From Muribaculaceae bacterium (GTDB lineage: Bacteria > Bacteroidota > Bacteroidia > Bacteroidales > Muribaculaceae): DNA of 45,348 bases. The DNA is taken from NCBI GenBank assembly GCA_017454355.1, contig JAFTDD010000009.1, forward strand, positions 1 to 45,348, given 5' to 3'. This document shows positions 11,734 to 26,816 of this stretch, piece by piece; the stretch's first letter is position 1, and every line of letters begins with the position of its first letter. The notes beneath the pieces were generated by a model, which searched no databases, was not told the DNA's origin, and saw only the letters and a program-made list of their open reading frames with translations. A program made the translations under genes and the position numbers.

Positions 11734-11857
11734 GCTGATGGTTGGTTTTTGGATTAATAATTATGTTAGTTAATAGATTGATAACAATAAAACCACACGT
11801 CCCGGCTCAGGCCACCTGGCGGCGGCCGGGATGTGATGCTGCTGATTTATGACGCTG
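11734..11857. other. 5' leader of the dockerin-protein gene with GC hairpin
   Basis: An untranslated A/T-rich leader of about 120 nt. It contains an 11-bp hairpin with one wobble pair (11796-11806 with 11825-11835), followed on the minus strand by GGTTTTATTG. It could act as an attenuator or as an mRNA-stabilising structure. No coding sequence was seen. Confidence 0.5.
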
Positions 11858-11888
11858 CAAAATTACAAAAAAAAGTTAAACCGCCAAA
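11858..11888 (-). promoter_or_regulatory. promoter of the dockerin-protein gene
   Basis: On the minus strand TTTG (11888-11885), a 19-bp spacer and TAATTTTG (11865-11858) match the Bacteroidetes consensus exactly. Confidence 0.7.
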
Positions 11889-12000
11889 AACCATGTCCAC
11901 GCCTTTTTGCGGCCAATTGTACGAAGTAGTAGTTATATAGCGGAAAAACCTGTGGTTTTCGGTAGTAGTTAATTATTGTTAAACTTATGGTCACTGCCGC

Positions 12001-12029
12001 TTGTATATCGCAAAAATGTAGTAATTTTG
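12001..12029 (+). promoter_or_regulatory. candidate distal promoter of the signalling cluster
   Basis: TTG at 12001-12003, an 18-bp spacer and TAATTTTG at 12022-12029. It lies about 650 bp before the first gene. Confidence 0.55.
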
Positions 12030-12091
12030 CACTGTGTTTTTCATGGTATTAGATTTAAGGTTAATTGAGAATTGGTTGTCGTGAGACACCC

Positions 12092-12123
12092 AATTTTTTT
12101 TGTCCCCCCCCCTCACACACACA
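12092..12123. repeat. homopolymer and dinucleotide tract (T8, C9, CA)
   Basis: T8-GT-C9-T followed by (CA)5 lies between the two candidate promoters of the signalling cluster. Such tracts are prone to slippage and could alter promoter spacing or sequencing accuracy. Confidence 0.7.
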
Positions 12124-12180
12124 TGAGTGCAAGCATGGAGTGCATGCAAAACACAGTTTTCCATTTTTTTTCACTTTTTT

Positions 12181-12211
12181 TTGTGCAATTAAAAAAAAAT
12201 CTATAATTTTG
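12181..12211 (+). promoter_or_regulatory. candidate proximal promoter of the signalling cluster
   Basis: TTG at 12181-12183, a 20-bp spacer and TAATTTTG at 12204-12211. It is preceded by T8 tracts and leaves a leader of about 465 nt before the ATG at 12682. Confidence 0.55.
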
Positions 12212-12522
12212 CCGTTGGAATGTAAGATTGTCCGTTCGCTGCGTATTGTGGTGAATTGCTGATCATACAATCCGCCCATTTTATTCCACGCCGGGGTGTT
12301 ATCGTTTGGTTGCGCCGGACGGAGGTGGGAAGACATATAGATTACGGCGTTTTCTGTGACGCTTTGGTTTTGACTATATAAGAATCTAGCAAATTCAAGA
12401 CTGTTTGTCAAAAACAAAGCAACGAGGACGTCCCGTGGGATGATTGTATAGATTACCCTGCATTTTGGTTTTACACCATATATTAAAGGGTAAGATTATA
12501 TCATCGGCGTGGGGCTTTCGGC

Positions 12523-12653
12523 GTTGCTCGTTCCGACAAACAGGGCAATGCTAGAGCCTTTATATAGTGGACCGAGCAACAGACTTGGCTCCACGTTTTA
12601 GTATCTATATGTCTGTGCTTAAAAAATATTAACCGTGTCTTGTGGAGCCCAAG
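12523..12653 (+). ncRNA. candidate structured 5' leader of the signalling cluster
   Basis: Two long-range pairings are visible in the untranslated leader. GTTGCTCG (12523-12530) pairs with CGAGCAAC (12573-12580), and CTTGGCTCCAC (12584-12594) pairs with GTGGAGCCCAAG (12642-12653) with one bulge. The second stem ends about 28 nt before the ATG. I do not recognise a known riboswitch; it may be a cis-acting RNA or a chance fold. Confidence 0.4.
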
Positions 12654-12681
12654 CCAAAATGATTAATAAGAAGGTTTCACT

Positions 12682-13449
12682 ATGTCACAGAACAAGACAC
12701 GTGTGCCGGGAGTGGACGGCAATGACTATGACGCTCCTTACACCCAATCAGATGAGGAAGCCCGGCCAAATCAATCGTCTCCCTACGCCAGACAAAGCGT
12801 ACATGGCACTGTTTTCCCCGGTATGGAGGCGGCAATGCCCTCTAACGTTGATGCTTCCCGTCAGCCACAACCGAGTGGCAAACCGGTTGTCGGTTTCTTA
12901 TATTCAGTTTCAAGCGGACGCCCGGAATATTGGCCGATACACATTGGAGTAAACATCATTGGCAGTGAAGAAGGCGGTTGCGATGTCGTGCTTGATGAGC
13001 AGACAGTGAGTGCGCATCATGCAGAATTGACAGTTCGCCGATATGATGGCGAGGAAGTGCAACCGATGCAGGCGTGGATTAGCGATAGCCGTTCCACTAA
13101 CGGTACGGTGGTGAACGGTCGCGGCCTGATGCGCAACGAGGTGGACTTGCAGAGCGGTGATATTATCCGTTTCGGTATCAATTACGAGATGGTGATTATT
13201 CTTGTGGATGCGGGTGCGCTTGGTCTTAAGCGTGCCGCCAAGTTCTCACGCCGTGCGCCGCAAGCCGAAGCCGCAAGCAGTCCCAATTACGGTTACCCCG
13301 ATGATGATGGTCCTCGCTTCACTCGTGACGAGGAAATATTCGGCCCCTCTAATAATCCTTATTCCGCAAGCACCGGAGGCCAGGGAGGCACCGTGTTGAC
13401 TGATGGTAATTCTTTATCACAAGGTAGGGGAAAAACTGAGTATATGTGA
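12682..13449 (+). CDS. cytosolic FHA-domain protein, first gene of signalling cluster
   Basis: 255 residues, no signal or TM segment. An FHA phosphothreonine-binding domain spans about residues 85-175: IGVNIIGSEEGGCDVVL (the G-S strand), SAHHAELTV (the S-x-x-H motif), then DSRSTNGTVVNG (the STNGT loop). All key phosphopeptide-contact residues are present. The N-terminal 80 and C-terminal 70 residues are polar, glycine/serine/proline-rich and likely disordered; the N-terminus holds several Thr/Ser that could be kinase targets. It is the first of eleven same-strand genes and is followed after 15 bp by a kinase gene. It probably acts as the adaptor that docks on the phosphorylated kinase or on another phosphoprotein of this cluster. 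Confidence 0.9.
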   Translation: MSQNKTRVPGVDGNDYDAPYTQSDEEARPNQSSPYARQSVHGTVFPGMEAAMPSNVDASRQPQPSGKPVVGFLYSVSSGRPEYWPIHIGVNIIGSEEGGCDVVLDEQTVSAHHAELTVRRYDGEEVQPMQAWISDSRSTNGTVVNGRGLMRNEVDLQSGDIIRFGINYEMVIILVDAGALGLKRAAKFSRRAPQAEAASSPNYGYPDDDGPRFTRDEEIFGPSNNPYSASTGGQGGTVLTDGNSLSQGRGKTEYM

Positions 13450-13464
13450 TATTAAGGTAGTGTG

Positions 13465-15075
13465 ATGCCGGAAATCATAAGAATACAAGACATTGCCGAA
13501 CGCCGTCAGGGCATATACTACGAGTTTGACGCCTCTCTTCCGCCATTGGGAGAGGGCGGCATGGGGCGAGTGTATAGCGGTTATCGTGTGGACACAATGC
13601 GTGGCAACGAGCGACGTCCCGTTGCCATCAAGTGCCTGCGCGACGGGCTACCCGGCCATGTAATAGAGCGGGCGCGTCGTGAGGCAAGCATTCGTCTGCG
13701 CAATGACAATCTGGTTGAAATGCTTGCTTTTATAGAGGTGCGTGACAACCAATCGCAGGCAATTCGCTACCATGTGGTCAGTGAATTGTTAAATGGTGTT
13801 GACATCAATGACATGATTGACGGCAAGTGCACCAATACCCTCAGCAAAGGTGCTCCGATTGCCTTTGTGCAGGAGATGAAGCGCCTTTACGACACCGACC
13901 CGTATACCTTTGCGATCAAGGTCACCAAGAGTGTGCTCTCCGGTCTTCTGGCTCTTCATCAAGCGGGATATATTCATCGTGACATTGACCCGAGCAACAT
14001 CATGCTCACCGCTGACGGCAAAATCAAGTTGATTGATTTCGGCATCGCCAAACTGATTGACACGCTGGGGACTCAAGACCGCGGCTTCACACATGACGGC
14101 CAATTTATCGGCAAGCCCAATTATGCGGCACCGGAGTTGGTGCTTGGAGACATAAAGCATCAAGACACCACCACCGATATCTATGCCGTCGGTATCATGC
14201 TGTTTCAGTTGATTGTGGGGCATGTGCCGTTTGACGGTCCGATGCATGAGGTTCTCAAGATGCAACAAAACAAGCGAATTCCACTTGAGCAGGTGCGTCA
14301 GCGAGCACTGCGGCGCATCATAGATAAGGCGACCCGCAAAAAGCAAAACGAGCGATACGGCACCGCAACCCAATTTCTTGTGGCTCTTGAAGATTTGGAA
14401 AGCCGCAATTTGCCGTATCCGGATCGTTCTTTGCCGTCTTGGGTAGGTAAGGTCGCTATTGGGGGAGTCGCCTCGTGTGTGTCAATCGCTCTTGTGATTT
14501 TCATTATTGACCTTTTTGACAGTCAGCATGAGGTGGTTGACAATCCGTCGGGAGGTCTCACGAATCAGGAAGTCTACGAAAATCAACTTAATCTTCTACA
14601 CGCCGGCCACAGTCAGTCGTTAGACACTCTGGAGATGCTGGCCGCAAAGGGTGTGTATGAAGCCGCCGCGACACTCGGTGTGTTGTATCGTGACGACGAG
14701 TATAGTGCTTGCCTGCACACGATACCGCCAGGCAGCACTGACTCGGCCGCCGTGTTTGAAATCCGCCGTGCCCTTCACATCACTCCAAACCCACGGCTGT
14801 CGCACCGTTTCATTGAGATGGCGGTCAACAATAATCCTCAAGACTACAAGATGCTTATCGAGTTGGCCGAGGATTACTTGTGGCCCAACGATGACACTAC
14901 CGGCAAGAACGTGATGGGTACTTCACAGAATTTAGCGCGTGCGAAAGCGCTGCTCGGGCGAGCCCGCGAGTGTGCCAAAGAAAATGGAGACATCCGTTAC
15001 ACCGACATTATTGACGACAAGTTGAATCTTGACTACCTTCAAAATATCGAACCGAATTTTGAACCGTCCGACTAA
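13465..15075 (+). CDS. transmembrane Hanks-type Ser/Thr kinase
   Basis: 536 residues from ATG 13465 (a GTG lies one codon earlier). The kinase domain is about residues 20-310: glycine loop GEGGMGRVY, catalytic lysine in VAIK (about 56), catalytic loop HRDIDPSN (about 171-178), DFG (about 191) and YAAPE (about 222). The catalytic loop carries Asp where Ser/Thr kinases have the conserved Lys of HRDxKxxN, so activity or substrate choice may be unusual. A single TM segment (VAIGGVASCVSIALVIFII, about 330-350) is followed by about 185 residues outside the membrane, helical and Sel1/TPR-like in parts (AAKGVYEAAATLGVLY). Topology suggests a sensor-linked kinase in the inner membrane. It is 9 bp from the next kinase gene. 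Confidence 0.92.
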   Translation: MPEIIRIQDIAERRQGIYYEFDASLPPLGEGGMGRVYSGYRVDTMRGNERRPVAIKCLRDGLPGHVIERARREASIRLRNDNLVEMLAFIEVRDNQSQAIRYHVVSELLNGVDINDMIDGKCTNTLSKGAPIAFVQEMKRLYDTDPYTFAIKVTKSVLSGLLALHQAGYIHRDIDPSNIMLTADGKIKLIDFGIAKLIDTLGTQDRGFTHDGQFIGKPNYAAPELVLGDIKHQDTTTDIYAVGIMLFQLIVGHVPFDGPMHEVLKMQQNKRIPLEQVRQRALRRIIDKATRKKQNERYGTATQFLVALEDLESRNLPYPDRSLPSWVGKVAIGGVASCVSIALVIFIIDLFDSQHEVVDNPSGGLTNQEVYENQLNLLHAGHSQSLDTLEMLAAKGVYEAAATLGVLYRDDEYSACLHTIPPGSTDSAAVFEIRRALHITPNPRLSHRFIEMAVNNNPQDYKMLIELAEDYLWPNDDTTGKNVMGTSQNLARAKALLGRARECAKENGDIRYTDIIDDKLNLDYLQNIEPNFEPSD

Positions 15076-15084
15076 TCACGAGCA

Positions 15085-16047
15085 ATGGCAATCCCCAATC
15101 AACAGAAGCCGGACCGCGGCAAACCGAAGCCACAGGTGTTTGTTCGTCCAAACGATCCCTTTATTTATTTGAGGGTTCGTACGGATTGGTATTGTTATTG
15201 TCCCACCGACACTCCGCTTGGTCAGGGGGCGATGGGAACAGTCTATGTCGGATACAACTGCAAGACAAGAGAACGCATCGCCGTCAAACGTGTGATCGAC
15301 CGTTATGCCAACGTGCCTCAGGTGCGCGAGCGGGCGCGTCAAGAGGCTGCTCTGGAGTTCCGTCATCCAAATCTCGTTGAGATGATTGGCTATTGTGAAT
15401 ATGCCCACGACAGCGGTCCCATCTTCTTGTTGAGCAATCTTGTCGAGGGGCAGAACCTCGATGCCTTCGTCAACGGGATGTCACTTGAAGATCCTCACCG
15501 TGTAGAAAAAATCTGCACAGCCATTTATCAGATATTGGATGCGCTTGACTACATTCATTCACGAGGCGTAATCCACCGCGATATCAAGCCCAGCAACATC
15601 ATGGTTGAGGGAAACGGAAACGTTCGCCTGATGGATTTGGGCATCGCGCGAATGGCCGAGGGTAATGCGTTTTCTCAGTATGGTTTCATCGGCACCCCGG
15701 AGTATTCAGCGCCGGAGCAGATCAACCGCGACCGCACCGGTGTCACCAATCCGATTGACGCGCGCACCGACATATATGCCCTTGGCATCACTTTCTATGA
15801 GATGCTCACCGGCAGCAACCCGATGTCGGCCAATTCGGATGCAATGATTCTCTCTAACCAGATGACCCGAATCCTGCCTGACGCCAGTAATATTCCGCGA
15901 CGTCTGATGAATGTGATACTGAAAGCCACCGAGAAAGAGGCTTCCAAACGGTTTTCACGAGCCATTGATTTCAAGAACGCCATCATTGATGCAATGACAC
16001 CAAGGCCGTCATTGTGGGAGCGCGTCATTAATATGTTGAGTTTTTAG
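15085..16047 (+). CDS. soluble Hanks-type Ser/Thr kinase
   Basis: 320 residues. All kinase motifs are readable: PLGQGAMGTVY (about 45-54), IAVKR (Lys about 67), HRDIKPSN (about 164-171), DLG in place of DFG (about 183), and GTPEYSAPEQ in the activation loop, whose Thr/Ser may be autophosphorylated. The N-terminal 40 residues (FIYLRVRTDWYCYCP) are unusual and precede the glycine loop. There is no TM segment or sensor domain, so it should be cytosolic. With the transmembrane kinase directly upstream it could form a cascade, or one may serve as scaffold. The canonical catalytic Lys contrasts with the Asp substitution in its neighbour. Confidence 0.92.
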   Translation: MAIPNQQKPDRGKPKPQVFVRPNDPFIYLRVRTDWYCYCPTDTPLGQGAMGTVYVGYNCKTRERIAVKRVIDRYANVPQVRERARQEAALEFRHPNLVEMIGYCEYAHDSGPIFLLSNLVEGQNLDAFVNGMSLEDPHRVEKICTAIYQILDALDYIHSRGVIHRDIKPSNIMVEGNGNVRLMDLGIARMAEGNAFSQYGFIGTPEYSAPEQINRDRTGVTNPIDARTDIYALGITFYEMLTGSNPMSANSDAMILSNQMTRILPDASNIPRRLMNVILKATEKEASKRFSRAIDFKNAIIDAMTPRPSLWERVINMLSF

Positions 16048-16085
16048 TCTAATGGCACATTATGAATCCAATAGTTTTATAATCA

Positions 16086-17267
16086 ATGAACAATCAATCA
16101 TCGAATATGCCGTCTCCGGGCACCACATCCGAATTGAGGTCACTCCCATGCAAATGTGCCGGTTATAGCGCCTATGGAGAATCGCGCATCGGCGGACGCG
16201 GCGAGAATCAAGACAGTTATGGATTTCAAGACACTATTGTTGGCTTCCTGCTGACAGTGTGTGACGGCATGGGCGGTGGACCTGGTGGAAAGACCGCAAG
16301 CACCATCGCAGTGCGTGAGATTATTGCGGGAGTGCTTGACGCCGATGCCGACGAAACCCCTGTCAATATACTTATCAAGGCCATCCGGCGCGCCAATCTC
16401 GCGATTATGGAGGTCGCCTCTAAGAATCCTCAACTCAAGGGAATGGGGTCGACATGCACAGCGTTGCTAATCAACGAGCGTTGCGCCACTGTAGCACACG
16501 TGGGTGACAGCCGTATTTACCAATTCTCGAACCGCGCTAAAATATGGCGCACATGGGACCACTCAATGGTATTTGAGATGGTGGCTAAAGGAGTTATCAC
16601 CGAGGAGCAGGCACGCTTGTCGGCCCAAAGCAATGTCATAACCAGAGCCTTGGGCATGAAGAGTGATGTTGAGGTGGATACGGCCGAACTTTCCTATAGT
16701 GCCGGAGATCGTTTCCTGTTATGCAGCGATGGCATTCACGGATTAATGCCCGAGCAGGAACTCGTCAAGATGGCTACTGACAAACGGATGAAACTCGGTC
16801 AGATTGTTGACAATATCGCCACCACCGCCGATGCGACAGGCCGCACTTGTGGAGGCGGTCACGACAACCTCACCATCGTGATGCTAGAAACAGAAATCAA
16901 TTCAACATTACAGTCACCTATGAGAAAAAAAATTAAAATCACAATCTTGGCTCTCGCCGCTTTTGCCCTGCTAAGTTTCGCCTGTAATATCCTCCAACTG
17001 CGTGGCAACAATGCCGGTAAGCGCGACGAGCTGATGTCACAAGATTCCATCGCCGCCCTATCCGATAGCCTTAATAGTCACAAAGAGCAAGTGGCAAACC
17101 TGGGCGAAAAGTTGGAGCAGGCTAACCAAAAGGCGCAAATCATGGAGGAGGAAGTCAAGAATTTGCAGGATTCAGTCAAGAGATTGAACTCGCAGAAGCA
17201 AAAACTGAGCGCCGAGAACGACGCGAAAGACAAGAAAATCAAAGAACTTGAAAAAACAAAAAAATAG
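16086..17267 (+). CDS. membrane-anchored PP2C-type Ser/Thr phosphatase
   Basis: 393 residues. The PPM/PP2C domain covers about 20-270: RGENQDSYG (metal Asp), VCDGMGGG (about 58-65), STCTALLI, AHVGDSRIY (about 136-144), LLCSDGIHGLM and GGHDNLTIV (about 257-265). All metal-binding aspartates of the family can be seen. A TM segment follows (ILALAAFALLSFACNIL, about 285-303), then a coiled coil of about 75 residues rich in K/E/Q/L that should lie in the periplasm. It would reverse phosphorylation by the two kinases just upstream; the coiled coil may oligomerise it or couple it to envelope state. The first 20 residues are low-complexity; ATG 16086 is the first in-frame start. Confidence 0.92.
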   Translation: MNNQSSNMPSPGTTSELRSLPCKCAGYSAYGESRIGGRGENQDSYGFQDTIVGFLLTVCDGMGGGPGGKTASTIAVREIIAGVLDADADETPVNILIKAIRRANLAIMEVASKNPQLKGMGSTCTALLINERCATVAHVGDSRIYQFSNRAKIWRTWDHSMVFEMVAKGVITEEQARLSAQSNVITRALGMKSDVEVDTAELSYSAGDRFLLCSDGIHGLMPEQELVKMATDKRMKLGQIVDNIATTADATGRTCGGGHDNLTIVMLETEINSTLQSPMRKKIKITILALAAFALLSFACNILQLRGNNAGKRDELMSQDSIAALSDSLNSHKEQVANLGEKLEQANQKAQIMEEEVKNLQDSVKRLNSQKQKLSAENDAKDKKIKELEKTKK

Positions 17268-17294
17268 TCTCCCCAAAAACGACAAACCATCAAT

Positions 17295-17963
17295 ATGAAG
17301 ACTTATTCTGTGGGTCGCGACCTCAGTTGCGACATCGTCATCAACGACAATAGTGATGTGATCTCTCGCCGCCACGCCATCATCCAGGTCGCCGGTAATG
17401 GAGATATCACCATCACTGACTGCTCGACCAACGGCACCTACGTCAACGGCATCCGCATTGCCGGCAACACGCCTGTGCCGGTAACGCGCAATGACAGCAT
17501 CTCGTTTGCCCATGTGAGCAAGTTGGATTGGAACATGATACCCAAGCAACGGGGAGTGTTTCAATACGCGCTCTACGCCCTATGTGTAATTGTTGCCGTA
17601 TGTCTCGCTTTCGGTGTGATAAAATACATTGACAATCGTCCGACTGATTCGGGAGGCACGGCAATTGTTGCTCAAGACTCTATCAATAAGGAGAGCGTAG
17701 CCAAGGATGATTCCATCAAGAAGACAGAAGATGCCGCCAAAGCCGGCAAGTCAGGCAAGGAGGCTGCGAAAGACAAAGAAAAGGACAAAACCGCCCGCAA
17801 AGGCAAGGCATCGCAAGATAAGGACAAGTCGTCTCAGGGCAAAGACAAGTCGTCTCAGGGCAAAGACAAGTCGTCTCAAGACAAGGACAAGTCGTCTCAG
17901 GACAAAGACAAGTCGTCTCAAGACAAGGAGCAAAGCGGTGGTCAGCAGGGCGAGCGCTTGTAA
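17295..17963 (+). CDS. FHA-TM protein with KDKSSQ repeat tail
   Basis: 222 residues. An FHA domain is at the extreme N-terminus (MKTYSVGRDLSCDIVI, then SRRHAII and DCSTNGTYVNG, about 1-85). A single TM segment follows (LYALCVIVAVCLAFGVI, about 93-110), then a highly charged tail containing five heptapeptide repeats KDKSSQ(G/D) and ending in QQGERL. The topology suggested is phosphobinding domain in the cytosol and Lys/Asp/Ser tail in the periplasm. The tail is encoded by a near-perfect 21-bp tandem repeat and is likely to vary in length. It is spaced 27 bp from both neighbours. It is probably a tether that brings phosphorylated partners to the membrane; the tail could interact with peptidoglycan or with the barrel encoded downstream, but this is speculation. 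Confidence 0.9.
   Translation: MKTYSVGRDLSCDIVINDNSDVISRRHAIIQVAGNGDITITDCSTNGTYVNGIRIAGNTPVPVTRNDSISFAHVSKLDWNMIPKQRGVFQYALYALCVIVAVCLAFGVIKYIDNRPTDSGGTAIVAQDSINKESVAKDDSIKKTEDAAKAGKSGKEAAKDKEKDKTARKGKASQDKDKSSQGKDKSSQGKDKSSQDKDKSSQDKDKSSQDKEQSGGQQGERL
17820..17924 (+). repeat. 21-bp in-frame tandem repeat, five copies
   Basis: Units of AAGGACAAGTCGTCTCAGGG-type sequence (21 bp) encode KDKSSQ followed by G or D. The copies differ at two or three positions, mainly GGC against GAC in the last codon. Confidence 0.9.
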
Positions 17964-17990
17964 TCACACTAACCAAAAACAGATATAGAT

Positions 17991-19568
17991 ATGAGAATAC
18001 TGAAAATCGGAAGAGCCAGGGAATGTGATATTACTTTTCCAAGCAGCAAGGTGAGTTCATTGCACGCCGAGTTGATGATACGTGACAACGGCGACTATGT
18101 GCTGGAAGACAAAGATAGCACCAACGGCACCTTTGTGATGAACAAGCGTGTTCGTCCGGGCGTGCCGGTGACAGTTCGCCGCGGCGACTCTATCCGCTTT
18201 GGCGACACCACCCTCAATTGGGCACAGATTCCCGAACCGGAGGATAACAGCCAGTTTCGCGCCATCTACAGTATTGGCAGCAACCTGACTAACGATGTGC
18301 GCGTCACCGGTTCAACAGTAAGCCGTTTCCATGCCACGCTGAAAATCGACCGTAAGGGTCATGCTTTTATACAGGATCATAGTTCCAACGGCACAATGGT
18401 GAACGGAACCCGCATCGTCAGCGGACAGAACGTTGCCATCAAGCGTGATGACGCTGTGGTGTGTGGGGGAGTTCCCGTGAGCATCAAGCAATATATCCCG
18501 AGCAACCAATGGGCCAAAGCACTGCGCTTTGTCGGCCTCGCCGCAGCCGTCATCGGCATTGTCGTTGGGGGGTATTTCTTGCACGAATGGCTACGGCAAC
18601 CCGCCGAGCCGTCGCTTGATGCGCTTGCCGATGCCACCGCCATGGTCTATGGCGCCTATTATATTGATGTGGAGTATAAGAACGACCCGTTGATTAATAT
18701 GATTGACGGTTGGCCCAGAGTGTGGCGTTTTGGTATCATCACGAGTGGCAAGCAGAGAACGTTCGGACTTGACTTGTCGTGGTATGGTGCCAGACAGGAT
18801 TTCTCGCCAATGGAGTATACTGGCACCGCCTTCTTCATATCGGACAAGGGAGAACTGGGCACCAACCGTCATATAGCGTCTCCGTGGAGTGATGACGTGT
18901 TGGAGGCCGAGTACAAGCAGACTATATATGAGCAAATGCAAACCGTCCTCAACGCTCTCATTCCTCGATACATCGACAATCCCGCAATTCAGGCGGCTAT
19001 CGACCAGACGCGCAAGTCGGACATAGTCATCAGTGGACATCATGAGTTTCTCGGTGTCCTGCCTCGCGGTCGTCAAGCGAACACGATTAACGACTTCCTG
19101 CCGTGTCAAGTGATTGCCGACTCGGGTGACGAGAACAAGGATGTGGCACTGTTGCGTCTGAATAATGTCCATACCCCTGATGACATAGTTAAAAACGGTT
19201 ACTTTAATATAATGACGGCAAGAACCGATGCGCGTTCGCTCAAGTTGAACGAGCGTCTTATAACGATTGGGTTCCCTAAAGGCTTCTCATTCGCTTACGG
19301 CGTTGACGAGAAGATTGAAATCAACCCGACGGTCAACGAGGCGACGGTGGGCAAGGTCGCCAACAATAACCAGTTCCAAATCCAATGCCAGTCCTATGGC
19401 GGACAGAGCGGCTCGCCTGTCATCGACGAGAACCGACATTTGGTTGGTGTGCTTTGGGGTGGCTTTGCTGACGTAAAACTGAGCGGACTGATTCAGAACA
19501 GCACCAACCTCACGTTAGTGTGTAACATTGAGCATCTTGTTGAACTGTACAACAAGCACCATAAGTGA
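17991..19568 (+). CDS. FHA-FHA-TM-trypsin-like serine protease
   Basis: 525 residues. Two FHA domains lie in tandem (about 1-85 with SSLHAELMI and DSTNGTFV; about 86-166 with VSRFHATLKI and HSSNGTMVNG), both with the phosphothreonine-contact residues. A TM segment (VGLAAAVIGIVVGGYFL, about 181-197) leads to a periplasmic trypsin-like domain. Its triad is readable as His in GTNRHIASPW (about 294), Asp in KDVALLRL (about 384) and Ser in GQSGSPVID (about 473), followed by LVGVLWGG. The order implies a membrane protease whose cytosolic half reads phosphorylation made by the kinases upstream. I know of no standard family with this order, which makes it the signature protein of the cluster. The stop TGA overlaps the next ATG by one base. 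Confidence 0.9.
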   Translation: MRILKIGRARECDITFPSSKVSSLHAELMIRDNGDYVLEDKDSTNGTFVMNKRVRPGVPVTVRRGDSIRFGDTTLNWAQIPEPEDNSQFRAIYSIGSNLTNDVRVTGSTVSRFHATLKIDRKGHAFIQDHSSNGTMVNGTRIVSGQNVAIKRDDAVVCGGVPVSIKQYIPSNQWAKALRFVGLAAAVIGIVVGGYFLHEWLRQPAEPSLDALADATAMVYGAYYIDVEYKNDPLINMIDGWPRVWRFGIITSGKQRTFGLDLSWYGARQDFSPMEYTGTAFFISDKGELGTNRHIASPWSDDVLEAEYKQTIYEQMQTVLNALIPRYIDNPAIQAAIDQTRKSDIVISGHHEFLGVLPRGRQANTINDFLPCQVIADSGDENKDVALLRLNNVHTPDDIVKNGYFNIMTARTDARSLKLNERLITIGFPKGFSFAYGVDEKIEINPTVNEATVGKVANNNQFQIQCQSYGGQSGSPVIDENRHLVGVLWGGFADVKLSGLIQNSTNLTLVCNIEHLVELYNKHHK

Positions 19569-21160
19569 TGTCAAGAGGGGTGTTATGGCATAAGATGGCA
19601 ATAACCGCGCTGGCAATGGCTGTCGCCGTAGCCGGTTGCCACGCGGCGACATTCCACTGGGTGATTACACCGGGCGCTTATTCCGATATTCGGATTGTGT
19701 CATCGCAACTGCTGATGTGTCAGAGGGGCAATCAGTGGGACCTTGTCACATCAAACGGCCAGACGGTTGTGAGTGATGTGGATTTCATCGACAATTTCTA
19801 TGAGAACAAGGCCGTGGTAGCACGCCAACAAAACGGGAAATACCGTTTATTGGGATACATCAATGCCACCGACATGAACTACAACGCATTCCCGAGTTCC
19901 CTCACGCTATATGCCACCAAGTATAGTCACTTTTCTGAGGGACTGATTGCCGTGCAAGACGGTAATGGACGACAAGGATTTGCCGATGCCGGCGGGCGCG
20001 TGGTGGTGCCATGTCGCTACCAATGGGTGGCACCGTTCTGTGAGGGAGTGGCTGTGGTGCGTCCCAAAGCCTCGGAGGCTCTTTACATCAGCAAGAACGG
20101 CACGGTAAAGACAATATCTCATCACGATGGCCGTCTCAATTTTGCCACAAGTTATAGCGGAGGAACGGCACTCGTGGGCAATAACGGTGACTATGCGTTG
20201 ATTGACCGCAACGGGCAGAAAGTGCGCAAACCATCAGACTATGAGGTGACGAACTTCCGCAATCTCCTTCAAGAGTCCGACAACAACAACTATACCTATA
20301 ACAACTCCCCGCATCATAGTGTCAAGTTGTCCGCAGGTGCCGTCGATGCCGGTTTGATATCCTACCAATCCGGCGGGCGATATGGCATCACTCAAGGTTC
20401 AACGCGTGTAACAGAAGCGGTGTTTGACAATCTAGGCGAATTCATCAACGGCCGTGCCGTGGCACGTGTCGGTTCACGCACGGGTGTGATTGAATTGGTT
20501 AACGGCTCATTTTCCGGTTCGCTCGAGACAACATCGGTAAGCCTGAAAGCCGGAGAACGTCCTATATCCAACAACGCTGTGATTAAGGTGCCCGACGGCA
20601 TGGATGTGTCAAAACTGAGTGTAACCGCTGAGGGTTGTTCCGACTGGACCTGCCACAATAGCGGAAATACAATCACATGCAGGTTCATTCCCTCATTGCG
20701 GGAGGGGGCAGACACACATCGCGTCGCTTTCATCATCAAGGATCAGGCCGAGATACCTCTTTACAGTTACGCGGGCCAGATTGACGTGAAATGGATTAGA
20801 AAGCCGGTTCCCGTCCAACAGCCCGTCGTTCAGCCAGACGAAGGCGGGGGCAAAAAGGATGTCCCTCACAAGAGGACCGGCAGCATCACCATCGGCAACA
20901 TTGAAGCCGGTAAACCCGACGCGCAAGGTAAAATAACAATTTCGGCAAGGGTCACCAACACCACTTCCAGCCCTGCTAACGGCACCATCGCTTGTCAGGG
21001 AAGACAACAATCGTTCACTGTGTCTGCCGGCAAGTCGGTGACCGCGGCGGTAACAGTAAGTAACGCGACAAAAAACAGCAAGACAGTGACGGCCTCCGTA
21101 GCATGTGGCACCGCGTCACGCTCGGCCACCGTTGTGTTGAAAGGTTTCACAACAAAATGA
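19568..21160 (+). CDS. WG-repeat lipoprotein with Ig-like C-terminus
   Basis: About 530 residues; start ATG 19568 overlaps the previous stop codon (a GTG sits one codon earlier). A signal peptide with lipobox VAGC (Cys about 24) predicts a lipoprotein. Residues about 45-300 show WG/KWG-type repeats (NQWDLVTSNGQTVV, GRQGFADAGGRVVVPCRYQ, GDYALIDRNGQKV, GRYGITQGSTRVTEAVFD), a beta-propeller-like fold usually used for binding. The C-terminal 100 residues (GSITIGNIEAGKPDAQ onward) look like an Ig/CARDB-like sandwich. It is translationally coupled to the FHA-protease, so it is a good candidate for that protease's partner or substrate in the periplasm. Confidence 0.85.
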   Translation: MSRGVLWHKMAITALAMAVAVAGCHAATFHWVITPGAYSDIRIVSSQLLMCQRGNQWDLVTSNGQTVVSDVDFIDNFYENKAVVARQQNGKYRLLGYINATDMNYNAFPSSLTLYATKYSHFSEGLIAVQDGNGRQGFADAGGRVVVPCRYQWVAPFCEGVAVVRPKASEALYISKNGTVKTISHHDGRLNFATSYSGGTALVGNNGDYALIDRNGQKVRKPSDYEVTNFRNLLQESDNNNYTYNNSPHHSVKLSAGAVDAGLISYQSGGRYGITQGSTRVTEAVFDNLGEFINGRAVARVGSRTGVIELVNGSFSGSLETTSVSLKAGERPISNNAVIKVPDGMDVSKLSVTAEGCSDWTCHNSGNTITCRFIPSLREGADTHRVAFIIKDQAEIPLYSYAGQIDVKWIRKPVPVQQPVVQPDEGGGKKDVPHKRTGSITIGNIEAGKPDAQGKITISARVTNTTSSPANGTIACQGRQQSFTVSAGKSVTAAVTVSNATKNSKTVTASVACGTASRSATVVLKGFTTK

Positions 21161-21204
21161 TAGTAGTAAAATTCTCTTTAATTAATAACTTAAATTTACT
21201 TCTT

Positions 21205-21903
21205 ATGATTAAAAAACTCTTATTATTCACAGCCTTTGCCATCGCCACAGCCACCGCGATGGCACAGGCAAGCGGTGGGTTTGCCTCAAGCGGAGACAAT
21301 CCCTTTGGCAGCACCGAAAATATCGATGATCCGGTTCCCGAGGAGAGCATCAACCGTCCGCGCATCTCTCTCGGCATCAAGGCCGGCGCGAGTTACTGCA
21401 TGGCCGGCAATCCGGACGGGCTTGACCTGGGCATGAGCGGTAATATCGGTTGGCAAGGCGGCATCGCCGCGAACGCCCACTTTGGTCGTCGTCATGCCGG
21501 TTCTCCTAACGGAACAGGCTGGTTTGGTGTTCAACTCGAGGCATTGTATGCGCAGCGCAACGTCAAGACAGACATAGAGAACATCAAGTTAACCTGCTGG
21601 GCAATCCCCGTGTTGGGACAAGTATTTGTCACTAGCGACCTTGCCATTGAGTTGGGTCCGACATTCACCGGCGTGATAAGCGGCAAGCCCAAGACAATGG
21701 CATTCCAGAACTACCAGATCGGCATCGGTGACATTAAGGGATTTGATATTATGCTTACCGCCGGTGTTGAGTATCTCAACAAGAAAGGCTTCGTCGCCAG
21801 CGCCCGTTACAACCTCGGCATGAGCAATCTTGCCGCAAATTTCAAGAGCAAGGTGAGCAGCCTTGAGGTGTCGGTCGGTTACCTGTTCACTTTGTCCAAG
21901 TAA
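21205..21903 (+). CDS. outer-membrane beta-barrel protein (PorT-like fold)
   Basis: 232 residues from ATG 21205, chosen because it starts a clean signal peptide (MIKKLLLFTAFAIATATAMA); longer readings extend into the preceding gene. The mature part has alternating hydrophobic strands typical of an 8- to 10-stranded barrel (ISLGIKAGASYCMAG, WFGVQLEALYAQRNV, KGFVASARYNLGMSNLA) and ends in the aromatic/hydrophobic strand VSVGYLFTLSK. It is probably a small porin-like barrel of the outer-membrane beta-barrel (PF13568-like) group. It would be the outermost component of the cluster, 44 bp behind the WG lipoprotein gene. Ligand and role are unknown. Confidence 0.82.
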   Translation: MIKKLLLFTAFAIATATAMAQASGGFASSGDNPFGSTENIDDPVPEESINRPRISLGIKAGASYCMAGNPDGLDLGMSGNIGWQGGIAANAHFGRRHAGSPNGTGWFGVQLEALYAQRNVKTDIENIKLTCWAIPVLGQVFVTSDLAIELGPTFTGVISGKPKTMAFQNYQIGIGDIKGFDIMLTAGVEYLNKKGFVASARYNLGMSNLAANFKSKVSSLEVSVGYLFTLSK

Positions 21904-21934
21904 CACAATCCATTAACAAAAAATCAATCCGACT

Positions 21935-22936
21935 ATGAAAAAATATTTATCAATGCTCGTCGCTCTTGTTGCGATGATCGTAATGGTCGCGTGTACCAAC
22001 GATGATATCCCGATGGGTAACACAGTCACCTTCAAGGTGAACCCTAACACCGTCGTTTCTCCTTTCACCTATGAGTTCAGCGCCGGTGAGTTGGAACAGA
22101 TTGACAGCGATGAAAAGTTGCGTCTGCGCCTGTTTGTCTATGACAACGCCGGCAATCTTGTGAACAAGGCCGAAGAATTGGTGAGCAGTTATACCAATAT
22201 CGTCAACATGCCTCTCTCGCTTGCATCTGGCAACTATACCATTATCGGCACCAGCGATGTGGTTCAGCCGGGAAGTAAAGTGCCCGAGTTCTGGGGCTTC
22301 AGTGGCGAGCAACAACTCAACACGCTGACAATTACCGACTTGGGCTACATTGGAGCACAAGCCAAGATTCTTGGTGTGGCAAAGTCACAGGTCAGTGTCT
22401 CTTCCGATACGCGCGATGTGTCTATTAACCTTGCTCCGGCCGGTTCTGTAATCTATGTGCTGGTGAGGAGCATTCATCAGTATAGCAATGTAACTCATTA
22501 TGGTTTGGTTTGCAACAAAACGACCGATGCCCTGCTGTTTGACAACAATGGCAACACATTATTTGATGTCAAACAACAAGACGGGATGGTGTATGTCATG
22601 GCCAAGATTTCAACAGGAAACACCGGTGACAACATCTACACTATGAACTACATATTCCCGATGACGACCGCTAAATATCAATTTGTGTACTATGAGGGAG
22701 ATTCTTTCTATGATTTAGGTTCGGAAATGACTATAAACAACACGACGCAGGCCGGCAAGGAGTATCTTTTCTCGATGGATATGTCAGCGTCGGATTATGC
22801 CATCTCGCTGAAGGACGTGACAGGTCAACGACGTTCCGCGCCTCAACGAGTCGCCGCCGCCAGAGCGCAAGACGGAGCTGCCGGATTGCCGCTTCTCAAA
22901 AACGATCCGGTGCGGGTTGTGGATTTGGTTAAATGA
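21935..22936 (+). CDS. lipoprotein, possibly FimB/Mfa2-like
   Basis: 333 residues. Lipobox MVAC (Cys about 20) is followed by TNDD, an acidic start common in surface-exposed Bacteroidetes lipoproteins. The pattern LRLRLFVYDNAGNLVNK then SLASGNYTIIGTSD resembles the FimB/Mfa2 minor fimbrial group, where a beta-sandwich carries a short ornamenting strand; no fimbrial shaft or Mfa1-like gene is nearby. The C-terminal 35 residues (RRSAPQRVAAARAQDGAA) are basic and unlike the rest. It is in the same operon as the kinases and barrel, 31 bp after the barrel gene. I am sure of the lipoprotein call but not of the family. Confidence 0.75.
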   Translation: MKKYLSMLVALVAMIVMVACTNDDIPMGNTVTFKVNPNTVVSPFTYEFSAGELEQIDSDEKLRLRLFVYDNAGNLVNKAEELVSSYTNIVNMPLSLASGNYTIIGTSDVVQPGSKVPEFWGFSGEQQLNTLTITDLGYIGAQAKILGVAKSQVSVSSDTRDVSINLAPAGSVIYVLVRSIHQYSNVTHYGLVCNKTTDALLFDNNGNTLFDVKQQDGMVYVMAKISTGNTGDNIYTMNYIFPMTTAKYQFVYYEGDSFYDLGSEMTINNTTQAGKEYLFSMDMSASDYAISLKDVTGQRRSAPQRVAAARAQDGAAGLPLLKNDPVRVVDLVK

Positions 22937-22966
22937 GCGGTTTTGGATGGCTTCATATAAGGCTTG

Positions 22967-24313
22967 ATGAAGAAATCTTCCTATCTATATTGCCTGCTGA
23001 TGGCGGGTTTGGCGGTGATGGCCGGTTGCAAAGACAAGCACTCCGAGCCTGCCGAACCCGCCACACCGGGCAATACGGTGGAGAATGTCTATGAGGCGGA
23101 GTGTCGTTGGATTTATGGCCAGATGAACCGCAACTACCTTTGGCGGGAAGACTTGCCTGATTCGTTAAATTGTGATTATTTGTTGCCGCCGCATGCCTTC
23201 TTCAACAACCTTCTCTCGCCCAAAGACCGCTTCTCCTATATTGAACTTAACAATGGCTATTCTCCTCCCGCTTCCGACTACGGATTCGAGTATCAACCAT
23301 TCATTGACAATATGGGTGACTTGTATTGGCAGGTATTATACGTCCGTCCGGCTATTCGACAACGGTTCGGCATCAAGCGCGGCGAGTTTGTCAAACCACT
23401 CAACCGCACGGCCAATACCTTGACACTCCGGCGGGGAGAATTTCTTGACAATCGATTTGTTGCGCGAGCGGTTTGTTCTATTGAAGCCGTCGTCAGTGAT
23501 GTCCATAACTCAACCGTGCTGCTTGACAGTATCTATGAGATTGGAGGTAAGAGAATTGGCTATTTATGCTATTTGAAATTTGACCGGACTGAGGATCTGG
23601 AACCGGCCTTGACACGATTTGCCGAAGAACACATTGACGAACTGATATTAGACTTGCGTTACAATCCAGGCGGTTTTATTGATACAAGTCTATTTCTTTC
23701 CAACGCCATTGTAACGCCCAACGGATATGGACAACTGTTTCAGCGCCTCAGTTACAACAATGTTCTCTCTGCCTCCTACCGGCTCAGAACAGGGGATGAG
23801 TGCACTTACTCATATTTTGACGATCCGACTGACAGGACGCGGTTACGCAGTCATGAGCCGATATCTCTGGGAATAGAGCGACTGGTTGTGCTGACATCAA
23901 AATATACAGCCTCGGCCAGTGAAGCCACTGTCATCGCCTTAAGGCCATTCATGCCGGTGGTTATCATTGGAGAACGGACTGTCGGTAAAGGGGTGGGCTC
24001 GTGGACTGTCAGCGATAGCCGGTACAAATATAAACTGCACCCCATTATTTTCCGTTATTGGAACGCCGCATCGGAAACGACACCGGATGATGGTTTGGCT
24101 CCTGACATTGAAATTAACGGTGGTTACTATACGCCCGGGGAAGAACTTGGAAACCTGAACGAGCCGCTGCTGGCAGCCGCCATCACGTCTGTAACCGGCT
24201 ATGCCGCTCATCACAACAATATCAAGCGTGTCGGTCACAAGCCCGCAGGACTTGTTCCGGCCGGCGAACCATCGTTTGTAACAACTTTTAAACAAATGAA
24301 CTATGAACTCTGA
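22967..24313 (+). CDS. S41-family peptidase lipoprotein
   Basis: 448 residues from ATG 22967 (a TTG lies one codon upstream). Lipobox VMAGC (Cys about 21) precedes acidic, proline-rich residues. The S41/C-terminal-processing protease core is visible in LILDLRYNPGGFIDTS, in SKYTASASEATVIALRP (serine region) and in GERTVGKGVGSW (general-base Lys). Family members cleave at unstructured C-termini or trim envelope proteins. The N-terminal region has YGQMNRNYLWREDLPD, a cap-like helix typical of Bacteroidetes S41 lipoproteins; no clear PDZ domain is seen. It is the second protease of the cluster and overlaps the next gene by 11 bp, so the two are coupled. Confidence 0.88.
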   Translation: MKKSSYLYCLLMAGLAVMAGCKDKHSEPAEPATPGNTVENVYEAECRWIYGQMNRNYLWREDLPDSLNCDYLLPPHAFFNNLLSPKDRFSYIELNNGYSPPASDYGFEYQPFIDNMGDLYWQVLYVRPAIRQRFGIKRGEFVKPLNRTANTLTLRRGEFLDNRFVARAVCSIEAVVSDVHNSTVLLDSIYEIGGKRIGYLCYLKFDRTEDLEPALTRFAEEHIDELILDLRYNPGGFIDTSLFLSNAIVTPNGYGQLFQRLSYNNVLSASYRLRTGDECTYSYFDDPTDRTRLRSHEPISLGIERLVVLTSKYTASASEATVIALRPFMPVVIIGERTVGKGVGSWTVSDSRYKYKLHPIIFRYWNAASETTPDDGLAPDIEINGGYYTPGEELGNLNEPLLAAAITSVTGYAAHHNNIKRVGHKPAGLVPAGEPSFVTTFKQMNYEL

Positions 24314-25619
24314 AATAAAACGACTTCTAACCACAGGGCTTATTCTCCTAGGCTCGCTAGTCACTGTCGCGCAAATGCAGCATATCTACCTCAAGGACGG
24401 CAGTGTTCTCAATGGCCATATGTCATCACAACGCATCGGACAGAACATAGAGATTACCACGTCAAGCGCTACTATTTGCATCCCTGACAATGGAGCGCGA
24501 GTTAATGAGCGTCTTGAACCGATTGACAAGTTATCTCAGCAGTGGATTGACTGGGCCGACGAAAACGATGCGTGGCAAATCAGAGAGGGTAAGAAGCATT
24601 TAACCATGGCCGACATCTCTTTCACAACAAAGGACGATGAACGCAATTGGAGAACTATTGAGTCGGTGAGGATTATAGAGCGAGGTAACATGATTAAGTA
24701 TCATGAATGTCGCACTAATCATTATGTGCTCAAACCGGCTGAGATTGACCGCTTTGTTGTTGACCGCCGATCTTCACAACAACTCACCGGAACTAACGTC
24801 CGATATACTTTGCGTGACGGACGCTCCGTTACCGGACAATATATTGAACTCATTCTGGGTAAAACACGCAGTATCATCGATGACAATGGCATTGTCTATA
24901 AGTTCCCCGTCAGGGATATCCTAAAACAAGAAATATTGCCGCTTCACCCGGACTACACGCTGCTTCAACAGAGTGAATTCCTTGATGAGATTGAACTTAA
25001 GTCTCAGTCTCCATTGAAGGGCGTGATTTCTCTTTACGATGATGAAAAAGGTTATGTTACTATTGAGAGTGTTCACGGTGGAATTCAAACCGTGAGGATG
25101 GACGACATCGTATGCTATCGCAAAACACTAAATAAGGATTGGGTCGACATTGAGGATATATTGTTGGAAGATGGCGAATTGCTGATTAACCGCTACACTT
25201 GTGATGCGCAAAAACTCATTGAACGCGACAACAAAATCCACTTTGATGTTGATAGCGTCCTCACGTGTTCTGTACCGATTGCCGAGGCCGAAAACCTATT
25301 GGTTGAGACAAAAATAGAAGCGAATAGTCTAAGTTCAAGGGACTTCGTCCTGCTTAGGCTGCGAGACTATACTCCCGACTTGAAAAAGGAAATTAGCGCA
25401 GCGGCCAAAAACAAAAAAGCAAAACCCATTACCGCTATCCGCAGATATGGTTTCACCTATGAGGACGCATTCCGTGGCGCGACACGCCCCGTCAGCCGTA
25501 TGACAACACCAAGCGGCACCACACGTCTCTCCTTTAAATTAGTGGTTCCGGTCCGCAAAGCGATATATGCCATTTACGACTCGGGGACTAATCAGATATA
25601 TCCGTTTATTGTTGATTAA
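24303..25619 (+). CDS. secreted protein with LKDGS-type repeats, function unknown
   Basis: 438 residues with an N-terminal hydrophobic signal (LLTTGLILLGSLVTVAQ) and no lipobox. Three degenerate copies of a beta module common in Bacteroidetes envelope proteins can be seen: HIYLKDGSVLNGHMSS, RYTLRDGRSVTGQYIE and SPLKGVISLYDDEKGYVTIE, each followed by a strand and a (V/M)xDI-like turn. The remainder is polar with no recognised catalytic motif. It is the last gene of the cluster and the most A/T-rich. The family is unknown to me. By position it could be the terminal periplasmic or secreted effector, or a structural partner of the S41 protease, with which it overlaps. Confidence 0.75.
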   Translation: MNSEIKRLLTTGLILLGSLVTVAQMQHIYLKDGSVLNGHMSSQRIGQNIEITTSSATICIPDNGARVNERLEPIDKLSQQWIDWADENDAWQIREGKKHLTMADISFTTKDDERNWRTIESVRIIERGNMIKYHECRTNHYVLKPAEIDRFVVDRRSSQQLTGTNVRYTLRDGRSVTGQYIELILGKTRSIIDDNGIVYKFPVRDILKQEILPLHPDYTLLQQSEFLDEIELKSQSPLKGVISLYDDEKGYVTIESVHGGIQTVRMDDIVCYRKTLNKDWVDIEDILLEDGELLINRYTCDAQKLIERDNKIHFDVDSVLTCSVPIAEAENLLVETKIEANSLSSRDFVLLRLRDYTPDLKKEISAAAKNKKAKPITAIRRYGFTYEDAFRGATRPVSRMTTPSGTTRLSFKLVVPVRKAIYAIYDSGTNQIYPFIVD

Positions 25620-25831
25620 AGACTAAGAGTAATCAGTAACTAGTTGCTGTACGATAAAATCCATTAGGATTGTCAATGTTTTGTAGGGCCTCGCTTTGGC
25701 GTGGCCGCAAGCAGCGACAAATGTGAGCCCCGTCAGGGGCGACAGCCCATAGGCGGGGGCGTGAGCCCCCGTGACTATGGCGTGAGTTTTTCTCAATCAA
25801 AGCCCCGTAGGCAGAAGCATGCGGAGACTGT
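25620..25831. repeat. intergenic GC-hairpin repeat region
   Basis: No coding sequence was seen. A TAATCAGTAACTAGTTGCTG-type motif is at 25630-25649 (a relative at 33121). GC hairpins follow: GCCCCGTCAGGGGC at about 25728-25741 and GGGGGCGTGAGCCCCC at about 25757-25772. The stretch GTAGGGCCTCGCTTTGGCG at 25682 resembles one embedded in the acyltransferase gene near 39015. Confidence 0.6.
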
Positions 25832-26012
25832 CGAAACTGTATCATAATTCATAATTTTTGGATTTAGCCGCCCTTATGGGCGGGAAATTATTCAAAATCT
25901 AAAATAAAAGCAAATAATTATTTTCTCATTTATAATGATTTAATAGATCTGAAAATTTGAATGAGATTTTGAAAGATTTCCGCACGCAACGCGTGCGCCA
26001 ATTATAATATAT
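25832..26012. mobile_element. MITE-like element, copy A
   Basis: It starts with 18 of the 19 bases of the terminal repeat CCGAAACTGTATCATAATT. It carries two GC hairpins (GCCGCCCTTATGGGCGG near 25868 and CCGCACGCAACGCGTGCG near 25980) around an AT-rich core with ATTTTGAAAGATTT motifs. The right end is degraded (AATTATAATAT instead of AATTATGATAC). It is an inverted copy of 40858-41045. Confidence 0.8.
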
Positions 26013-26015
26013 CTA

Positions 26016-26816
26016 CTAATCACTCTTTATATTGGGGTCGATGCCGAGGCCGAAGAGGGCGTAGTCGTAGTAGATCGGGTCGTCGGGTCGCAGGCGTCGC
26101 AGCACATCGGTAATCTCGACGGTGGTGCGGCGGTCGGCCTGATGGCGTGACGTCAGTCCTAGGCTGTGGGCGGTGTTTCCCACGTGCACATCAAGCGGAA
26201 TGAACAGTTGGCTCGGCCGGATGGAGTGCCACAAGCCCATATCAACGATGCCATCGTCGCGCACGAGCCATCGCAGCGCCATGTTGACGCGCTTGAGAGC
26301 CGACGTGCGCAGGTTCGACGGCAGGAAGCGCGAGTCGCACGTGCCGCCGTTGGCGGCGGCGATGTCGGCGTTGAGGTGCTCCACGAGCGTCCATGCCGGC
26401 GCCGCGGTGTCGCCCGCGCCGATGACCGCCGAATAGGCGTCCAGCGACCCGTGACGGCCGTACACCTCGCGCAGGCCACGCAGCGCGTGCTTGAGGTTGC
26501 GGCCAAAGAACGTGCGGTGAATGTTCAGTTCGTCGGGCACGGCCTCCCACGCGCCGTCCATCATCCACGCTGCCGGTTGCCCTTCCATCAACTCCAGCAG
26601 CCGCTCGGCGTCGCGGCAAATCATCTTGCGGTTGCCCCAGGCGATGGCCGCCACCAGCAGTGACACCACCTCCACGTCGGGCAACGACGTGAACCGACGC
26701 GGAAACTGCACCGGGTCGCTCAGCGCAAACTCCGGCCGGCACACCCTGCCCGCCTCGCGCTCGAGCAACTCTCTTAACTCTCTATCGTCCATCCTCATAA
26801 AGGTATTGAAAAACAA
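26016..26816 (-). CDS. TIGR02757-family protein
   Basis: Up to 266 residues; starts at 26816, 26798 and 26792 are all possible, and MDDRELRELLEREA (26792) fits the family best. Conserved features of the TIGR02757/DUF2400 family are clear: LVAAIAWGNRKMICRDAERL, FLPSNLRTSALKRVNMALRWLVR, WHSIRPSQLFIPLDVHVGN and the C-terminal DPIYYDYALFGLGID. The family has an HhH-GPD-like helical arrangement and conserved Asp/Lys, suggesting a link to DNA-glycosylase folds, but its activity is not established. It is a single gene; the MITE-like element lies directly behind its stop codon. Confidence 0.88.
   Translation of the reverse strand: MFFNTFMRMDDRELRELLEREAGRVCRPEFALSDPVQFPRRFTSLPDVEVVSLLVAAIAWGNRKMICRDAERLLELMEGQPAAWMMDGAWEAVPDELNIHRTFFGRNLKHALRGLREVYGRHGSLDAYSAVIGAGDTAAPAWTLVEHLNADIAAANGGTCDSRFLPSNLRTSALKRVNMALRWLVRDDGIVDMGLWHSIRPSQLFIPLDVHVGNTAHSLGLTSRHQADRRTTVEITDVLRRLRPDDPIYYDYALFGLGIDPNIKSD

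What the first reader, a model, noticed from the sequence alone, without database searches (positions are those of the whole stretch)
12682..25619. Eleven-gene FHA / Ser-Thr kinase / PP2C / protease cluster reaching from cytosol to outer membrane
Directly visible: eleven plus-strand genes, most gaps under 45 bp and two overlaps, encoding FHA, TM kinase, soluble kinase, TM-PP2C, FHA-TM, FHA-FHA-TM-protease, WG lipoprotein, barrel, Mfa2-like lipoprotein, S41 lipoprotein and a secreted protein. Known: kinase/PP2C/FHA sets govern type VI secretion or cell division elsewhere, but no Tss gene is here. Inference: the proteins form one pathway in which cytosolic Thr phosphorylation, read by FHA domains, controls periplasmic proteolysis and an outer-membrane output. 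The cluster is visibly less GC-rich than the flanking genes, hinting at transfer.
Basis: partly seen in the sequence, partly recalled or inferred. Interest (0 to 1): 0.88.

Follow-up and report, generated by a model that had tools for sequence, protein, structure and literature searches.

The report
Mobile kinase-protease module, T6SS-linked in relatives
An eleven-gene unit in a Bacteroidales genome combines two protein kinases, a phosphatase, phosphothreonine readers, a membrane protease that faces outward and several envelope proteins; it sits on an apparently acquired island, and relatives of it are built into the gene clusters of a bacterial injection weapon, so it may be that weapon's control module working here without the weapon.

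Summary
In detail: eleven tightly packed plus-strand genes (12682-25619) encode FHA, TM kinase, kinase, PP2C-TM, FHA-TM, FHA-FHA-TM-trypsin-like protease, WG protein, barrel, lipoprotein, S41 protease and a secreted protein. It is a recurrent unit: 13 loci in 12 genomes, all 13 with the protease, PP2C and at least one kinase; barrel and gene 9 occur in 5 of 13, S41 in 2. The own genome carries a second, seven-gene copy. The window copy looks like an island: in a close relative (flanking DNA 93-96% identical) the two flanking genes are adjacent and 13.9 kb is missing. The new point is the T6SS link. In two relatives of different families the same genes run straight into ClpV and TssC of a Bacteroidota T6SS, and in 9 of 21 TssC-positive Bacteroidales genomes kinase genes adjoin T6SS genes. 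Yet 10 of the 12 module genomes, the window's included, show no TssC. Best reading: a threonine-phosphorylation control module of T6SSiii kind with an added outward-facing protease arm, here acquired without a T6SS and probably acting on its own envelope proteins. Signalling steps are inferred. "Mfa2-like" is not supported.

The parts
12108..26034 (.). island: stretch absent from relative G016, where about 55 other bases join the two flanking genes
12180..12211 (+). candidate Bacteroides-type promoter (TTTG, 20 nt, TATAATTTTG)
   Evidence: only strict match on the plus strand of 11700-26100; consensus recalled; weak
12682..13449 (+). gene 1: soluble FHA adaptor with two N-terminal T-x-x-P-G motifs
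   Evidence: FHA 58.5 bits; motif in 8 of 8 homologues
13462..15075 (+). gene 2: kinase, one TM segment (331-349), extra-cytoplasmic tail
   Evidence: Pkinase 116.7 bits; TM
15085..16047 (+). gene 3: kinase, no TM segment in this copy
   Evidence: Pkinase 156.6 bits
16086..17267 (+). gene 4: PP2C phosphatase, one TM segment, C-terminal coiled-coil-like tail
   Evidence: PP2C_2 49.1 bits; TM
17295..17963 (+). gene 5: FHA, one TM segment, repetitive charged tail
   Evidence: FHA 67.2 bits; TM
17991..19568 (+). gene 6: FHA-FHA-TM-trypsin-like protease; H294, D384, S473 invariant in five aligned sequences
   Evidence: FHA 120.1 and Trypsin_2 39.5 bits
19565..21160 (+). gene 7: exported WG-repeat protein
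   Evidence: WG_beta_rep 56.1 bits
21205..21903 (+). gene 8: outer-membrane beta-barrel (start moved from 21103)
   Evidence: OMP_b-brl_2 30.2 bits; alignment A6
21935..22936 (+). gene 9: lipoprotein of unknown fold
   Evidence: invariant Cys20 after the signal peptide; no family match
22964..24313 (+). gene 10: S41 protease lipoprotein, accessory
   Evidence: Peptidase_S41 76.3 bits; seen in 2 of 13 loci
24303..25619 (+). gene 11: secreted beta-rich protein
   Evidence: no Pfam match; in 9 of 13 loci, two of them weak; model

Best explanation
The cluster is a transmembrane phosphothreonine relay of a family that also serves as a companion module of Bacteroidota T6SS. Inferred working: the two kinases, one with an extra-cytoplasmic region that could sense the envelope, phosphorylate the gene-1 adaptor at its conserved T-x-x-P-G motifs; the FHA domains of membrane proteins 5 and 6 bind the phosphorylated adaptor; this clusters or reorients protein 6 and switches its periplasmic serine protease; PP2C resets the relay; the exported proteins 7-9 and 11 are sensors or substrates. 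In relatives the same core adjoins T6SS genes and would gate that weapon. In this genome, where no T6SS was found, it arrived on an island and most likely controls its own envelope proteins. Shown by computation: parts, conservation, topology, island, T6SS neighbourhood in relatives. Inferred: every signalling step, its direction and the substrate.
For: Conserved unit: protease, PP2C and a kinase in 13 of 13 loci. Matched parts: kinases, PP2C and FHA proteins in one run; T-x-x-P-G in 8 of 8 gene-1 sequences, 0 of 91 other module proteins, 0.6% of shuffled N-termini. Genes 2, 4, 5, 6 each have one TM segment C-terminal to the signalling domain. T6SS: in G309 and G294 the module runs into ClpV, a TssB-position gene and TssC; kinases adjoin T6SS genes in 9 of 21 TssC-positive genomes. 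Island and foreign affinity.
Against: 10 of 12 module genomes show no TssC, so T6SS cannot be the general output. 8 of 17 TssC-positive order genomes have no Pkinase match and 4 have kinases only elsewhere. Only two T6SS loci hold the full module. No phosphorylation, binding or proteolysis was tested. Tree position of the T6SS-linked pair is unresolved in the seven-gene tree (18.7/20). In the motif scan parts of the protease triad were not found in L047, L086 and L088.
Confidence: 0.5

Rival explanations
1. A stand-alone envelope-stress or surface-remodelling module. The kinases read envelope damage, the protease trims surface proteins, and the T6SS neighbourhood in two families is a later recruitment without functional need.
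For: 10 of 12 module genomes lack a TssC match; orphan copies in several families keep genes 8, 9 and 11; the seven-gene copy in the own genome has no accessory envelope genes besides WG.
Against: Kinases adjoin T6SS genes in 9 of 21 TssC-positive genomes, far above chance by a rough count; WG, barrel and gene-9 relatives also stand at a T6SS end in G002.
Confidence: 0.3
2. An anti-phage or conflict module in which kinases act as toxic effectors, like the kinase-kinase-phosphatase (KKP) systems.
For: Two kinases and a PP2C side by side; island and patchy spread; kinases match PADLOC PD-T4-6 models strongly.
Against: Those matches are what kinase domains give in general; no cold-shock domain and no FHA on the kinases, unlike KKP (PMC11341870, passages); most of the module is membrane or envelope protein; T6SS neighbourhood.
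Confidence: 0.1
3. A decaying or chance assembly of unrelated genes.
For: Accessory genes vary between loci.
Against: All eleven frames are open; kinase, PP2C and protease motifs are present in the window copy; the order recurs in other families.
Confidence: 0.03

Closest known systems
T6SS threonine phosphorylation pathway (PpkA, PppA, Fha, TagQRST) of Proteobacteria
   Same: TM kinase, PP2C, FHA proteins; in two relatives encoded beside T6SS genes.
   Different: Two kinases, a TM-anchored PP2C, FHA on membrane proteins and on a protease; no Tss gene in the window; TagH/Fha model TIGR03354 scores 43.6 and 67.3 bits against a cut-off of 120.25. TagQRST and TagF were not searched for as families.
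T6SSiii loci of Bacteroidota (PMC10781749, PMC4714493; passages and term counts only)
   Same: TssC and Hcp in G294 match the PF17541 and PF17642 models.
   Different: Term searches of those two papers found no 'kinase' or 'FHA'.
KKP kinase-kinase-phosphatase prophage modules (PMC11341870, passages)
   Same: Two kinases and one PP2C in a row.
   Different: KKP order is phosphatase then two kinases, with cold-shock and FHA domains on the kinases; here neither.
Phosphorylation-switched FHA adaptors GarA/OdhI
   Same: Small soluble FHA protein with conserved threonines outside the FHA domain; that GarA/OdhI work this way is recalled.
   Different: OdhI model 17.0 bits against 200 for gene 1.
MarP-type membrane-anchored periplasmic serine proteases
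   Same: Trypsin-like domain behind a TM segment.
   Different: Here behind two FHA domains and one TM; MarP model 13.6 bits against 250.

Membership tests
T6SS threonine phosphorylation pathway | TM Ser/Thr kinase, PP2C phosphatase and FHA protein encoded together | tested here: met
T6SS threonine phosphorylation pathway | encoded with or acting on a T6SS | tested here: not met
   No TssC or VgrG-type domain found in the window genome, 89% complete; met in relatives G294 and G309
T6SS threonine phosphorylation pathway | FHA protein of the TagH/Fha family | tested here: not met
   TIGR03354 below cut-off for genes 5 and 6 and not listed for gene 1
T6SS threonine phosphorylation pathway | phosphorylated FHA partner required for output | not testable with these tools
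   needs experiment
KKP module | one kinase with a cold-shock domain, the other with FHA | tested here: not met
   definition from passages
KKP module | location in a prophage | not tested
   no phage gene was recognised among the ORFs examined, but the flanks were not fully searched
Anti-phage systems in PADLOC | system-specific parts beyond a generic kinase or protease domain | tested here: not met
   gene 9 was not in that scan
Mfa2/FimB fimbrial anchor (gene 9) | family or fold match | tested here: inconclusive
   no family match, best solved-structure match E 0.11 to a 'putative adhesin', model pLDDT 40.9

The most novel reading that the evidence does not exclude
Bacteroidota T6SSiii has its own threonine-phosphorylation control layer, which differs from the proteobacterial one in sending the signal outward through an FHA-gated periplasmic protease; the layer is modular, moves between families as islands, and has been separated from the weapon to drive other outer-membrane outputs.
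Probability: 0.3. Interest if true: 0.85.

Novelty: new variant of a known kind. Interest (0 to 1): 0.7.

Why it matters
How Bacteroidota T6SSs are controlled after translation seems open: term searches of two T6SSiii papers found no kinase or FHA. A kinase/PP2C/FHA/protease set that adjoins such loci in several families gives named genes to test. An FHA-gated periplasmic protease would be a route from cytosolic threonine phosphorylation to proteolysis across the membrane. Orphan copies would show how a weapon's control circuit can be reused.

Tried and rejected
Anti-phage reading: PADLOC gave kinase-domain, trypsin-domain and weak PP2C/coiled-coil matches. KKP membership: hallmark domains absent. 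'Mfa2-like' for gene 9: no family support; AlphaFold2 model too poor to use (pLDDT 40.9). Gene 11: model usable only for residues about 26-276; its fold search never ran. Sigma-70 promoter and terminator scan: more hits than in shuffles but scattered over both strands, not used. Island ends: no long terminal repeat among the repeats shown (capped list); no integrase search was made. My first view that T6SS loci of the own genus lack kinases rested on partly fetched loci and was dropped when their far ends were fetched. L031 was left out of counts as the same contig as L044 (equal sequence features and contig length). Divergent loci L027, L028, L090-L096 were kept out of the 13.

Papers: PMC11341870, PMC7159879, PMC10781749, PMC10482370 and PMC11925235 seen as found passages; PMC4714493 as a term count without passages; the rest as search listings. 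The ten literature searches that ran listed no paper whose title or abstract start describes this module or a T6SSiii phosphorylation pathway; listings were capped and the library lacks bioRxiv and most subscription journals.
Full report
Observation. The eleven plus-strand ORFs are present and tightly packed. Pfam assigns FHA to genes 1, 5 and 6 (two in 6), Pkinase to 2 and 3, PP2C to 4, Trypsin_2 to 6, WG repeats to 7, a beta-barrel to 8 and S41 to 10; gene 9 has one sub-threshold match and gene 11 none. Hydrophobicity gives one TM segment each in 2, 4, 5 and 6, C-terminal to the signalling domain. GC is 0.498 for 12108-26034 against 0.565 and 0.564 in the flanks.

The unit recurs. A protein search of 61 genomes found a second copy in the same genome (G000:C60) and others. 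Profile searches of 393 order, 101 genus and 395 phylum genomes and one scan of named genomes gave more. Without L031 (the same contig as L044), 13 loci in 12 genomes form one family. Gene 6 and PP2C are in 13 of 13 and a kinase (gene 2 or 3) in 13 of 13; gene 3 in 12, gene 2 in 9 (plus a contig-edge fragment in L026), gene 5 in 11, WG in 11, gene 11 in 9 (weak in L088 and L089), gene 1 in 8, barrel and gene 9 in 5 each, S41 in 2. L026, L030 and L046 are cut by contig ends. The family is rare: 6 of 393 order genomes (the other 2 of 8 hits are a protease frame without FHA in G046 and a different long frame in G424) and 6 of 101 genus genomes; in the phylum sample only G000 and G294 belong to it. 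More divergent sets (L027, L028, L090-L096) are not counted; some served as outgroup.

Inside the proteins. Gene 1 has T-x-x-P-G-[MVI] in 8 of 8 sequences, 0 of 91 other module proteins and 0.6% of shuffled N-termini; each of the eight also carries a threonine within its last nine residues. That these are kinase sites read by FHA domains is inference. Gene 2 has HRDID in 8 of 9 sequences, a departure from the usual HRDxK (recalled) that I cannot interpret. The triad columns H294, D384 and S473 are invariant in five aligned sequences; the wider motif scan missed one or more of these motifs in L047, L086 and L088, by divergence or because the pattern was strict.

Island and transfer. In G016 the two genes that flank the cluster are adjacent. 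Flanking DNA matches at 95.8% (7777-12107) and 93.4% (26035-26780); window 12108-26034 is replaced by about 55 bases. Synteny beyond these two genes is not kept, so the claim is limited to this junction, and deletion in G016 is not excluded. Of the 28 other genomes with a DUF2400 match I fetched ten including G016; the other nine (L179-L187, one only 3.8 kb) show neither the cluster nor the 1318-aa gene. In both concatenated trees the window copy pairs with G273 of another family (100/100), and six loci of the own genus, including the second copy of the own genome, form a separate clade (100/100). In the gene-6 tree the five barrel-bearing loci group with support 94 (my reading of the unrooted splits, since re-rooting shifts printed labels), but the seven-gene tree does not keep them together. 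The PP2C and kinase trees are weakly supported inside the family.

The T6SS link. In G309 and G294 (families f79 and f59) the order FHA, kinase, PP2C, FHA-TM, FHA-FHA-protease, gene 11, TM kinase, WG runs straight into a ClpV-type AAA gene, a 148-aa gene in TssB position (no Pfam match) and TssC; G309's TssC is cut by the contig end. In G294 the locus goes on with Hcp (PF17642), a VgrG-type gene and a weak TssK match below its cut-off. I call it T6SSiii because of the TssC and Hcp models. Both genomes carry a further kinase, TM kinase and WG gene at the other end (in G309 on another contig). Other T6SS loci were annotated with models built from G294 and G309 genes. G283 and G367 have, beside their T6SS, an FHA protein with a trypsin-like region (one FHA; Trypsin_2 below cut-off, 22.8 and 23.9 against 27.6 bits), PP2C, FHA and kinases. 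In the own genus all four TssC-positive genomes have a kinase and a WG gene beside T6SS genes; G442, G451 and G489 have PP2C there too, and G002 has relatives of genes 8 and 9. In G002 and G442 this is on another contig than TssC.

Proximity. Of 17 TssC-positive order genomes, 8 have no Pkinase match at E up to 1e-10, 4 have kinases not near TssC (G055, G214, G278, G344), and in 5 every kinase found adjoins T6SS genes: 14 of 20 kinases over the 17 genomes, two of them on G309's second contig. In the four genus genomes it is 5 of 21. A stricter count, same contig within 35 kb of TssC, gave 12 of 20 (0.44 expected) in the order genomes and 3 of 21 (0.50 expected) in the genus; 7 of 13 kinase-bearing genomes have at least one (0.90 expected, simulated p about 6e-6). 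The radius was set after seeing the data, and genes of one locus are not independent. A control of 204 kb of other loci held no kinase, PP2C or FHA match but three WG proteins, so WG alone is weak evidence. Module against TssC in the order sample, taking the two 393-genome samples as the same: 2 of 17 with TssC, 4 of 376 without (Fisher p 0.024).

The link is not general. 10 of the 12 module genomes have no TssC match, and the own genome has no VgrG-type domain match. Several of these genomes are incomplete (83-90%), and for G882 completeness is not given. Hence the reading: one module family, beside a T6SS in some lineages and free in others. With divergent modules in the tree the free loci separate from the T6SS-linked pair plus outgroup (97, 98); without them the pair is unplaced (18.7/20). 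Whether the module left the T6SS or joined it is open.

Close barrel homologues in the genus (243.7 and 138 bits) are two, both in G002 and both beside kinase and WG genes; the other matches reach at most 57.2 bits and occur in most of the genus (80 of 101 genomes with a match at E up to 1e-5). Gene 11 has matches in 8 of 101 genus genomes at E up to 1e-5: the window, G477 (a module locus used in the query), a weaker one in G011 with no module in the 20 kb read, and five of 28 bits or less.

Structure. Gene 11: pLDDT 60.7, residues about 26-276 beta-rich and mostly above 70. Gene 9: pLDDT 40.9, not usable. Both used only three sequences. No fold search ran.

Novelty. Term searches of two T6SSiii papers found no kinase or FHA, a review of T6SS regulation has no 'Bacteroid' in its text, and ten literature searches listed nothing on this module. 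That is not proof of absence from print.

Noticed in passing
L025 10843-19902 (G000:C60): A second, seven-gene copy of the module in the same genome, with GC like its neighbours; an about equal copy is in G016.
   Followed up: partly
L208 5586-11358 (G002:C71): Kinase, WG, two gene-9 relatives and a barrel in one run, on a 12.8-kb stretch in which the models found no T6SS gene.
   Followed up: partly
L045 16532-17680 and 3612-5066 (G385): A caspase-domain gene directly upstream of the module and a second TM kinase at its downstream end.
   Followed up: no
L092-L096: Family f136 of the same phylum carries divergent FHA-protease/PP2C sets with one to several kinase genes in a row.
   Followed up: no
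window 17797-17943: 21-nt direct repeats in gene 5 that encode a repetitive charged tail.
   Followed up: no
window 7777-11733: 1318-aa secreted protein with internal duplication and sub-threshold dockerin and EF-hand matches at its end; it adjoins the island site in G016.
   Followed up: partly
L100 12440-13747 (G294): T6SS cargo gene with a DUF4280 domain and a toxin-domain match (Ntox46).
   Followed up: no
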